This document shows, one piece after another, positions 42,442 through 64,000 of a stretch of 64,000 nt of DNA. The stretch is from contig NZ_GL892076.1 in NCBI RefSeq assembly GCF_000213975.1, positions 163,854-227,853 on the forward strand, written 5' to 3'. The notes beneath the pieces were generated by a model. It worked only from the letters and a program-made list of their open reading frames with translations, made no database searches and was not told the origin of the DNA. Source of the stretch: Centipeda periodontii DSM 2778. GTDB lineage: Bacteria; Bacillota; Negativicutes; Selenomonadales; Selenomonadaceae. The position numbers were made by a program, and so were the translations under genes. Positions within the stretch are counted from its first letter, which is position 1; the number at the start of each line of letters is the position of its first letter.

Positions 42442-42556
42442 GGTATCGTTACTCAGTTCCCGACATGGTTTGGTCTATCCGTGCCAAACTCTCTCTCGAG
42501 GCGAACGAATCCGCAAAATCTCCATCCCCATCACTCGCAGGTCAATCGGTGATTGT

Positions 42557-42762
42557 TAATCAAGCAGGTCTCCTGGCTCCAGTTCATCGCTCTTTCGCAT
42601 CTTCCCAGAGATCTCTCCCCAGTGACTGCCGACTTTCATCGACGTGCGAAATCACTCCCTGTTACAGTGGCGTGACCGCTCCGGCTTATGAAATCAGTGA
42701 TTCCCATACCGGATTCCCTATGAAGCATCTGAGGCTCTGCACGCAGAACCTCTGCACTTGAT
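42557..42762 (-). ncRNA. Cobalamin riboswitch
   Basis: On the minus strand the conserved blocks appear in order: GGGAATCCGGT, GCCACTGTAACAGGGAGTG, AGTCACTGG, GGGAAGATGCG, and the B12-box-like GAACTGGAGCCAGGAGACC followed by TGC. This is the standard adenosylcobalamin aptamer. It lies about 435-640 bp upstream of mutA, downstream of a sigma-A promoter, and precedes an intrinsic terminator. Confidence 0.95.
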
Positions 42763-42797
42763 CCATCATCAATATTTAGTTTTTATGGTACGATAGA

Positions 42798-53978: not shown

Positions 53979-54008
53979 CTGACAAAACAAACGTTTCTAT
54001 GATATACT
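53979..54008 (+). promoter_or_regulatory. Promoter of the first structured small gene
   Basis: CTGACA (53979-53984), 18-base spacer, TATACT (54003-54008). The predicted start near 54015 falls exactly on the first base of the pseudoknot. Confidence 0.6.
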
Positions 54009-54014
54009 GAGTAT

Positions 54015-54048
54015 GTTGCTTACCCCATACTGGCAACAGAAAGGGGTG
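54015..54048 (+). other. Predicted H-type pseudoknot at the 5' end of the small mRNA (copy 1)
   Basis: Stem 1 is GTTGC (54015-54019) with GCAAC (54033-54037); the loop carries ACCCC (54022-54026), which pairs with GGGGT (54043-54047) after stem 1. The second strand is also the ribosome binding site of the small ORF. The same topology with different bases occurs at 63894-63927. Confidence 0.65.
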
Positions 54049-54054
54049 TTGGTC

Positions 54055-54144
54055 TTGGAGATACTCACCATTTTTTGTATTTCTGTCGCAGCAAATGTAG
54101 TTTCATACTACATTTGCAAATGGCTGGACAGAGCGATGAGTTAG
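54055..54144 (+). CDS. 29-residue hydrophobic peptide with YYICKW core (copy 1)
   Basis: A TTG start at 54055, six bases after AAAGGGGTG, opens a 29-codon ORF ending TAG at 54142-54144. The peptide is a single hydrophobic helix with core ANVVSYYICKW and a charged LDR end, thus a likely membrane peptide with short cytoplasmic tail. The related ORF at 63935-64000 has ASVVAYYICQW at the same place. Codons for these residues form a perfect 11-bp hairpin (54091-54101 with 54107-54117). It has its own promoter and terminator. A type I toxin or a small regulatory membrane peptide would fit; no antisense RNA has been shown. I cannot name the family. Confidence 0.65.
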   Translation: MEILTIFCISVAANVVSYYICKWLDRAMS

Positions 54145-54188
54145 GCAACCAGCATCGGGCTCAAGCCACCCGCGCAAGAACGGCATAG

Positions 54189-54221
54189 AAAATCCCGGCA
54201 GTGCGACCTGCCGGGATTTTT
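54189..54221. terminator. Bidirectional terminator between the small gene and rpoC
   Basis: A 13-bp perfect stem (54189-54201 with 54208-54220) and a six-base loop, with T-runs on both strands. It ends the small plus-strand transcript and lies 68 bp after the rpoC stop. Confidence 0.92.
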
Positions 54222-54289
54222 GTTGGTTGGAAATCCTCACCAAGATTTCTGGGTATAGTATAACACGTTCAATCGCATATTGCAAGTGC

Positions 54290-58318
<4,029 letters not shown>

Positions 58319-63778: not shown

Positions 63779-63893
63779 AGTCAGCACTCCTTTGCCGCTT
63801 CCAAAAACGTAACAATGACGAAGTATTCTCTTTCTCTCCCTCGTTTTCCTGCTTCTATATCAAAAAGAATATATTGTATGCTATACCGTTCAT

Positions 63894-63930
63894 GCTACTC
63901 ACCCCAACACTCAAGTAGCAGAGGGTGTGG
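63894..63930 (+). other. Predicted H-type pseudoknot (copy 2)
   Basis: Stem 1 GCTACT (63894-63899) with AGTAGC (63914-63919); loop CACCC (63900-63904) pairs with GGGTG (63923-63927), which overlaps the ribosome binding site. It matches copy 1 in layout but not in stem sequence. A -10-like TATACC lies at 63882-63887. Confidence 0.65.
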
Positions 63931-63934
63931 TGTA

Positions 63935-64000
63935 ATGTCAGTTCGATATTTTGTGCAAGCTGTTACGGCGAGTGTAGTAGCCTACTACATTTGCCAGTGG
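63935..64000 (+). CDS. Small hydrophobic peptide with YYICQW core (copy 2), cut by the window edge
   Basis: An ATG at 63935 opens 22 codons to the right edge without stop. The core ASVVAYYICQW matches ANVVSYYICKW of the ORF at 54055-54144. The codons form a 12-bp hairpin (63968-63979 with 63983-63994) that includes two G-U pairs where copy 1 has A-U pairs. Confidence 0.6.
   Translation, partial: MSVRYFVQAVTASVVAYYICQW

What the first reader, a model, noticed from the sequence alone, without database searches (positions are those of the whole stretch)
54015..54144. Family of tiny self-structured peptide genes: 5' pseudoknot over the ribosome site plus a hairpin inside the ORF
Two loci (54015-54144 and 63894-64000) share an architecture not explained by protein sequence alone. 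At the transcript 5' end, stem GTTGC/GCAAC in copy 1 is GCTACT/AGTAGC in copy 2, and the loop strand ACCCC pairing with GGGGT becomes CACCC with GGGTG: different bases, same pairing. The second strand is the Shine-Dalgarno region. Inside both ORFs an 11-12-bp hairpin covers the codons of A-x-V-V-x-Y-Y-I-C; copy 2 replaces two A-U pairs by G-U and keeps the stem. The peptide is a hydrophobic span with a W-L-D-R type tail. Copy 1 has its own promoter and terminator. Translation hidden in RNA structure together with a tiny membrane peptide is reminiscent of type I toxins, but no antitoxin RNA is evident; a ligand-sensing pseudoknot controlling a membrane peptide is another option.
Basis: partly seen in the sequence, partly recalled or inferred. 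Interest (0 to 1): 0.88.

Follow-up and report, generated by a model that had tools for sequence, protein, structure and literature searches.

The report
Par-type toxin–antitoxin with knotted toxin mRNA

Summary
Repeats beat all 100 shuffles in 87 of 116 family loci and 76 of 101 further sites; copy 2's own repeat is not significant. Where an antisense -10 follows (72 of 91), its median distance is 9 nt. Five classical Fst loci show the same repeats. The peptides have the published Fst/Ldr tryptophan and align in register with Fst, but pass no Pfam or NCBIfam cut-off. The mRNA fold is constrained at RNA level: over 79 mRNAs, 87.8% of cells pair, against 36–46% when slid, and codon-preserving permutations never reach the ORF helices. 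One helix joins the Trp-Leu codons to the 3' UTR as a pseudoknot. The 5' strand has two mutually exclusive partners, which suggests a switch. The family occurs in 155 of 380 class genomes, in Clostridia, Bacilli and plasmids. Rfam's 'sRNA' SpF66 is a relative. Toxicity and transcripts are untested.

The parts
53979..54008 (+). copy 1 toxin-mRNA promoter-like site: CTGACA, 18 nt, TATACT with TG before it (extended -10)
   Evidence: 10 of 12 matches; 3 sites in the region versus a mean of 0.6 in shuffles
54012..54174 (+). copy 1 structured toxin mRNA core (covariance model R1 match)
   Evidence: 118.9 bits, full model; this locus is among the sequences that built R1. Rfam RF02442 matches 54003-54232 at 29.2 bits, E 3.1e-5, cut-off 42
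54015..54019 (+).
54022..54026 (+). anti-Shine-Dalgarno ACCCC, pairs with GGGGT 54043-54047 (helix P2)
54040..54047 (+). Shine-Dalgarno region AAAGGGGT
   Evidence: sequence
54047..54070 (+). translation-start copy of the direct repeat, covers the start codon
   Evidence: score 26; 0 of 100 shuffles reach it
54055..54144 (+). copy 1 toxin ORF, TTG start, 29 aa MEILTIFCISVAANVVSYYICKWLDRAMS, stop TAG 54142-54144
   Evidence: start aligned with the ATG of homologs
54082..54087 (+). helix P3 5' strand TCTGTC (Ser-Val codons), pairs with GACAGA 54127-54132 (Asp-Arg codons)
54091..54117 (+). helix P4, 11-bp hairpin inside the ORF
54122..54126 (+). helix P5 5' strand GGCTG (Trp-Leu codons), pairs with CAGCA 54150-54154 (4 of 5 pairs in this copy); pseudoknot with P1 and P3
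54145..54154 (+). post-stop element GCAACCAGCA: 3' strands of P1 and P5
54189..54221 (+). terminator-like hairpin, A-rich/T-rich arms, plausibly bidirectional
   Evidence: sequence by eye; the scan listed no terminator
54221..54242 (-). antitoxin copy of the direct repeat (RNA II 5' region)
54189..54250 (-). predicted antitoxin RNA II, about 60 nt (start inferred from the -10, end from the hairpin)
   Evidence: inference and the repeat; no transcript data
54257..54285 (-). antitoxin promoter-like site TTGCAA-17-TATACT with TG before the -10
   Evidence: 9 of 12 matches
63882..63887 (+). copy 2 -10-like element TATACC
63894..63927 (+). copy 2 5' region: GCTACT 63894-63899 / AGTAGC 63914-63919 and CACCC 63900-63904 / GGGTG 63923-63927
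63935..64000 (+). copy 2 toxin ORF, 28 aa MSVRYFVQAVTASVVAYYICQWLDSCLR, runs past the window end (stop at window-equivalent 64019-64021)
63968..63994 (+). copy 2 P4 hairpin, 12 bp

Best explanation
The locus is a chromosomal type I toxin–antitoxin system built on the plan of par of plasmid pAD1 (Fst / RNA I / RNA II). The plus-strand mRNA encodes a small membrane peptide (24-29 aa in this genome's three copies) that is presumably toxic (inferred). A convergent promoter whose -10 lies about 113 nt beyond copy 1's stop codon would make a short antitoxin RNA that shares the terminator and whose 5' end repeats, in opposite sense, the toxin's translation-start region. It would pair with that region and block the ribosome; this step is inferred from the repeats and from known par biology. 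The mRNA also protects itself. Once the 3' end is transcribed, the same 5' strand can move to the element just after the stop codon (P1). There it lies next to a pseudoknot (P5) made by the Trp-Leu codons, around a codon-embedded long hairpin (P3/P4). The helices are supported by covariation. The order of folding and the switch are inferred.
For: Direct repeats: 87 of 116 loci beat all 100 dinucleotide shuffles (100 of 116 have at most 5), mean 27.3 versus 14.6; 97 of 116 are in the top 5% of other-locus pairings. Sites found by an ORF pattern alone: 76 of 101 beat all 100 (mononucleotide) shuffles, 85 of 101 are in the top 5% of other-locus pairings. Within genomes the cognate repeat is strictly best in 59 of 69. 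An antisense -10 within 40 nt of the repeat in 72 of 91 loci, versus 11 of 91 in a control stretch further on; median distance 9 nt. Antisense promoter score 11.64 versus 9.98 in mononucleotide shuffles, 67 of 116 loci with at most 2 of 50 shuffles as good; sense strand of the same stretch 10.46 versus 9.97. Five Fst loci show the same repeats, scores 32-43 versus about 14-16. Profile alignment with Fst: probability 85, E 5.9e-6, Trp and Leu-Asp in register. RNA fold: 87.8% of cells paired versus 36-46% slid; 247 cells with double changes versus 86 shuffled, 0 of 500; one P5 pair uses all four Watson-Crick types in 73 of 78 rows, plus one G-U. Codon-preserving permutation reaches the ORF helices in 0 of 1000. 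A covariance model finds 21 loci in 10 of 14 genus genomes, the same 10 as the peptide profile (several of these loci also trained the model). Plasmid carriage.
Against: No transcript, toxicity or antitoxin assay was available. Copy 2's repeat (8 nt) is not significant by itself (26 of 100 shuffles as good) and its cognate score only ties a non-cognate one. About one locus in six or seven lacks a clear repeat (16 of 116 and 16 of 101 have more than 5 of 100 shuffles as good). Pfam Fst_toxin (PF13955) does not match: 0 of 149 genomes, own genome included. The terminator was not listed by the scan. The local 5' stem is a minority feature (23 of 77), so the switch may be lineage-specific. In the five Fst loci the cognate partner of the P1-like and P5-like duplexes is strictly best in only 2 of 5 each, and the fold model meets only one of the five (E 0.009). 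P2's outermost pair fails in 55 of 72 rows; the count of pairs with any double change is only modestly above shuffles (18 versus 15.1, 10 of 500 reach it). 4 of 14 genus genomes lack the family.
Confidence: 0.9

Rival explanations
1. A ligand-sensing RNA (riboswitch-like pseudoknot) controls a small membrane peptide.
For: The 5' region can form an H-type pseudoknot over the ribosome site with sequence changes that keep pairing.
Against: The leader is short and poorly conserved; the only gathering-level Rfam match in the window is the cobalamin riboswitch at 42546-42776. The most locus-specific element is matched by an antisense copy, which a ligand aptamer would not need.
Confidence: 0.03
2. 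Still a type I TA, but activated as in hok/AapA: a 5'-3' clamp makes the full mRNA inert and 3' processing is needed before translation or antitoxin binding. (This shares the TA reading and differs in the activation step.)
For: P1 joins the extreme 5' end to an element after the stop and covaries; local and distal partners compete for the 5' strand. The hok/AapA plan is recalled, apart from the general outline in PMC11228461 (abstract and introduction).
Against: Gene layout is that of par, convergent with repeats. The commentary PMC11295053 (passages) says that no cleavage of fst mRNA has been identified. Processing was not testable here.
Confidence: 0.25
3. The RNA is mainly a non-coding regulator (as 'SpF66 sRNA' is filed) and the ORF is incidental or a fossil.
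For: Rfam files the streptococcal relative as an sRNA; the ORF helices are RNA-constrained.
Against: Amino acids are conserved across a diverged set (Trp 79, Cys 78, Asp 77, Ala 77 of 79) with an SD and in-frame starts. PMC12323649 (passages) reports that F67, the neighbour of F66, is annotated as a Fst-family toxin.
Confidence: 0.05

Closest known systems
par of pAD1 (Fst/RNA I/RNA II) and Fst-family loci of Lactobacillales
   Same: Convergent promoters, repeat of the translation-start region between terminator and antisense promoter, SD-hiding leader, single-span peptide with Trp (Val in pAD1 itself) then Leu-Asp and a charged tail (layout of par from PMC7472228, passages and section 4). A 5'-end helix is published for par; here P1.
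   Different: Ser/Thr/Ala stands for Pro in the membrane motif; an extra long codon-embedded hairpin (P3/P4); no match to Pfam Fst_toxin; hosts include Negativicutes. Whether par RNA I has P5 is only weakly supported.
Rfam RF02442 SpF66_sRNA (pneumococcal F66)
   Same: Full-length model matches: plasmid relatives L177 93.8, L171 65.1, L174 49.0 bits, above the cut-off of 42; L158 42.9; window 29.2 bits, E 3.1e-5.
   Different: Filed as non-coding sRNA. The window locus is below the cut-off; copy 2 scores 19.6 bits, E 0.83.
Clostridioides difficile type I toxins (NCBIfam NF047374)
   Same: Weak similarity of the membrane span, E 2.4e-5 to 0.04 in 4 of 8 peptides; convergent antisense genes (PMC6563280, passages).
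   Different: All far below the cut-off of 60 bits; the C. difficile toxins are 34-59 aa with lysine-rich tails (PMC6563280, passages).
TimP/TimR (Salmonella)
   Same: A toxin mRNA with mutually exclusive folds, one of them with a pseudoknot (PMC11228461, abstract and outline).
   Different: The TimP pseudoknot lies in the leader (PMC11295053, passages); here one lies between coding codons and the 3' UTR.

Membership tests
par/Fst type I TA | convergent antisense promoter beyond the toxin ORF | tested here: met
   copy 1; family: (72 of 91 repeat-bearing loci)
par/Fst type I TA | direct repeats giving antitoxin–toxin pairing over the translation start | tested here: met
   family: 87 of 116 and 76 of 101 beat all shuffles; copies 1 and 3 met, copy 2 alone not significant
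par/Fst type I TA | shared bidirectional terminator | tested here: inconclusive
   hairpin with A-rich/T-rich arms by eye at 54189-54221; the scan listed none
par/Fst type I TA | intramolecular structure hiding the SD and the extreme 5' end | tested here: met
   P2 68.7% of cells paired; P1 89.8% (four pairs) and 83.1% (fifth pair); by covariation, not probing
par/Fst type I TA | peptide signature: Trp between a hydrophobic span and a charged tail (PMC7472228 section 4) | tested here: met
   Trp 79 of 79; 2 to 10 charged residues from the Lys to the end, 2 in 8 rows and 3 in 37 of 79, so the tail is weakly charged in many; span not tested by a program
par/Fst type I TA | P/D/S/TxxxG motif in the span (said of the majority of toxins in PMC7472228) | tested here: inconclusive
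   37 of 79 peptides have S/TxxxG; 25 have SxxxS; the rest N, D, E or Ala variants; copies 1 and 2 lack the Gly (alignment)
par/Fst type I TA | match to Pfam Fst_toxin PF13955 | tested here: not met
   the model also finds only 1 of 14 control genomes, below its cut-off
par/Fst type I TA | toxicity relieved by RNA II; RNA II less stable than RNA I | not testable with these tools
   needs bench work
Rfam SpF66_sRNA | score at or above gathering (42 bits) | tested here: not met
   window 29.2, copy 2 19.6; three plasmid relatives and L158 meet it
C. difficile type I toxin NF047374 | score at or above the curated cut-off (60 bits) | tested here: not met
   best 24.6 bits among 8 peptides; the window's own peptides had no match
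riboswitch | conserved aptamer / Rfam match at the leader | tested here: not met
hok-like type I TA | 3' processing needed for activation | not testable with these tools
   no transcript data

The most novel reading that the evidence does not exclude
Toxin mRNAs of this par-type family are bistable RNA switches whose coding sequence is part of the switch. A local 5' pseudoknot guards the nascent RNA; a full-length form clamps the 5' end to a post-stop element next to a pseudoknot formed by the toxin's Trp-Leu codons. The codons are thus selected as RNA, activation is by refolding rather than cleavage, and the plan is shared from Enterococcus and Clostridia plasmids to Selenomonas-group chromosomes, perhaps also by classical fst mRNAs.
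Probability: 0.4. Interest if true: 0.75.

Novelty: new variant of a known kind. Interest (0 to 1): 0.55.

Why it matters
The family is common (155 of 380 class genomes, up to 8 copies each). Of the 9 relatives on plasmid records that I opened, none has a gene listed at the place (the PLSDB gene tables are incomplete, and one listed E. faecium record has a 'hypothetical protein' there). How fst-type mRNAs become active is open: PMC11295053 (passages) notes that no cleavage has been identified and speculates on a conformational switch. The covarying helices found here name the strands to mutate. Rfam's 'sRNA' SpF66, whose mutant had a nasopharyngeal fitness defect in PMC3395615 (passages), looks like a toxin mRNA of this family, so that phenotype may need rereading.

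Tried and rejected
Riboswitch: Rfam scans gave nothing there but SpF66 and weak, probably chance, matches. A loose duplex test against other loci gave only weak signal: of 72 non-redundant loci, in the top 5% were 11 for 5'-to-post-stop, 12 for 5'-to-local-leader, 3 for SD-to-leader, 3 for a control stretch of the ORF, probably because many loci share GTTGC/GCAAC. It was replaced by aligned covariation. Solved structures: the profile hits none. PADLOC: no match (3 peptides). PHROGs: only phrog_738, unknown function, E 0.012-0.26 in 4 of 4 peptides. Energy folding does not show the pseudoknots and cannot. No AlphaFold model was made: a 29-aa span would tell little. One E. faecium plasmid hit (L173) lacks the repeat. 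Phage records: 14 with a weak match at E <= 10, best 1e-3, not followed. Literature: searches (1 paper, listing only; 67 papers, 30 listed; 0 papers; 5,654 papers, 15 listed, all unrelated microbiome work; 203 papers, 15 listed, all malaria work) showed me no report of this family in Selenomonas or other Negativicutes; only open-licence papers are held, I judged these by their listings, and the Fozo 2010, Weaver 2009 and Shokeen 2009 papers could not be opened.

Full report
What is there. Copy 1 (54015-54144) and copy 2 (63894-64000, cut by the window end) carry the pairings and ORF hairpins described. The genome has a third copy at C1:1675418-1675492 on the minus strand. Homologs place copy 1's start at TTG 54055.

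The antitoxin. After each of the three ORFs comes a terminator-like hairpin and then, by eye, a promoter pointing back at it; for copy 1 the scan lists it: TTGCAA-17-TATACT at 54285-54257 minus. Between them lies a direct repeat of the ORF's translation-start region: in copy 1, 54221-54242 against 54047-54070. I extracted 121 distinct loci from related genomes and tested 116 (5 dropped for missing flank or N). Own repeat score averages 27.3, dinucleotide shuffles 14.6, other loci 14.7. 87 of 116 beat all 100 shuffles, 100 have at most 5, and 97 lie in the top 5% of other-locus scores. Many loci are related, so I repeated this on loci fetched by an ORF pattern alone: from 117 stretches, 101 sites could be tested (10 identical to the earlier set and 8 too near an end were dropped); 76 beat all 100 mononucleotide shuffles and 85 are in the top 5% of other-locus scores. 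This second set is not wholly independent: near relatives of the first set were not removed. Within one genome the cognate repeat is strictly best in 59 of 69. An antisense -10 lies within 40 nt beyond the repeat in 72 of 91 loci with a good repeat, against 11 of 91 in a control stretch, at a median distance of 9 nt. The start region and its antisense copy therefore change together while staying matched.

Against this, copy 2's own repeat is only 8 nt and not significant (26 of 100 shuffles as good), and its cognate score ties a non-cognate one. 16 of 116 and 16 of 101 loci have more than 5 of 100 shuffles as good.

The mRNA fold. In an all-against-all covariation scan of 72 non-redundant mRNAs, 8 of the top 10 column pairs belong to helices P1, P3, P4 and P5; of the other two, one adjoins P5 and one (9-16) is no helix. 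The top pair is paired in 68 of 72 rows, with all four Watson-Crick types. On 79 rows the named structure pairs in 87.8% of cells, against 36-46% when partners are slid by 1-3 columns; 247 cells carry double changes against 86 in shuffles, 0 of 500; the number of pairs with any double change is 18 against 15.1, reached by 10 of 500. P1 joins the 5' end to the element after the stop (89.8% of cells in four pairs, 83.1% in the fifth), P2 the anti-SD to the SD (68.7%; its outermost pair fails in 55 of 72 rows), P3 the Ser-Val to the Asp-Arg codons (91.6%), P4 is the ORF hairpin (90.4%), and P5 joins the Trp-Leu codons to the post-stop element (94.4%). P5 crosses P1 and P3, so the coding sequence takes part in a pseudoknot. 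Permuting codons only among rows with the same amino acid at the same column never reached the observed pairing in P3 (434 versus 391, sd 4) or P4 (786 versus 744, sd 4), 0 of 1000 each. The ORF structure is thus not a by-product of the protein.

It is a perfect 4-bp match in 23 of 77 rows, against 10% in shuffled leaders and 4% in leaders of loci with a different 5' strand. Of 73 rows with letters, 20 can form both P1 and the local stem, 40 only P1, 2 only the local stem, 11 neither, at the stringency used. Because both use the same 5' strand they exclude each other. A switch from local (nascent) to distal (full-length) pairing is my inference.

Relation to known systems. The review PMC7472228 (passages and section 4) gives par_pAD1's layout: convergent promoters, shared bidirectional terminator, repeats over the Fst start, an SD-hiding stem-loop, a helix holding the 5' end, and a Trp between the membrane span and the charged tail, with P/D/S/TxxxG in the majority. 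Five Fst loci fetched as a yardstick (4 annotated as Fst, one found by tblastn) score 32-43 in the same repeat test against about 14-16 in shuffles. They can form P1-like and P5-like duplexes, but the cognate partner is strictly the best in only 2 of 5 for each, so that the codon pseudoknot also exists in classical fst mRNAs is open. Profile-profile alignment joins our peptides with Fst over 28 columns without gaps (probability 85, E 5.9e-6). Ser/ThrxxxGly is present in 37 of 79 peptides. Pfam Fst_toxin does not match, and no peptide tested reaches a Pfam or NCBIfam cut-off. I therefore file it as a variant of the par kind by architecture, with a divergent toxin.

Distribution. Peptide profile: 10 of 14 genus genomes at E <= 0.01, 123 of 189 family genomes at E <= 1e-3, 155 of 380 class genomes at E <= 1e-4, and 14 of 398 sampled phylum genomes at E <= 1e-4, 9 of them outside the class. 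A covariance model of the fold finds 21 loci in the same 10 of 14 genus genomes (several of them trained the model). Of 13 named contigs given to it, out of 117, 12 match at E <= 1e-13 and L200 only at 0.15 (some overlap the training genomes). Plasmids: a tblastn with one relative matches 525 records at E <= 10, 453 of them Enterococcus; the weak hits may include other things. In 8 of 9 fetched plasmid loci the best alignment is the repeat in the expected place, though one (L176) scores 21 against a shuffle maximum of 24; L173 has none.

Naming in databases. PMC12323649 (passages) says that F67, listed next to F66, is annotated as a Fst-family toxin in PneumoBrowse2; PMC6212727 (passages) lists three Fst-family type I systems in strain D39V.

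Limits.

Noticed in passing
window 54013-54290 and L008, L012, L015, L016, L018, L020, L023: In 8 of the 14 genus genomes a copy sits within 1.5 kb of the 3' end of rpoC (8 of 20 loci tested); start region and antisense repeat differ between species but stay matched. A review passage (PMC4147584) says that an rpoC mutation gives Fst resistance in E. faecalis; probably coincidence.
   Followed up: partly
L021 (G013) and L027 (G000:C1:101573-101608, the window's own genome); Decayed copies: L021 has a stop in the ORF and lacks the leader; L027 keeps a leader and part of the ORF only.
   Followed up: no
L009 (G002): Copy 2 type with intact leader and ORF whose downstream, antitoxin-bearing side is replaced by unrelated sequence; the repeat test fails (34 of 100 shuffles as good).
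   Followed up: no
L112, L120, L121, L144, L118: A group with a shorter leader; no convincing repeat in the usual place in L120, L121, L144 and L118, and L112's best match (3 of 100 shuffles as good) lies in the leader rather than over the start codon. The antitoxin may be elsewhere or organised differently.
   Followed up: no
L087, L088, L111, L115, L125, L126, L142, L158-L160: Tandem arrays of two or more copies, mostly about 335-520 nt apart, with different start regions, as with pneumococcal F66/F67.
   Followed up: partly
L263: A strong model match (79.9 bits) on a contig titled Synergistaceae MAG, outside Bacillota; could be transfer or a mis-binned contig.
   Followed up: no
window 42546-42776, minus strand: Cobalamin riboswitch, 91.4 bits.
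   Followed up: no
window 54091-54117, minus strand: The ORF hairpin is so symmetric that the covariance model also scores its reverse strand (21.2 bits); a read-through antisense RNA would carry it too.
   Followed up: no
phage records MT837624.1, MT838020.1: Weak matches of the peptide in unannotated phage records from human faeces (E 1e-3 and 3e-3).
   Followed up: no
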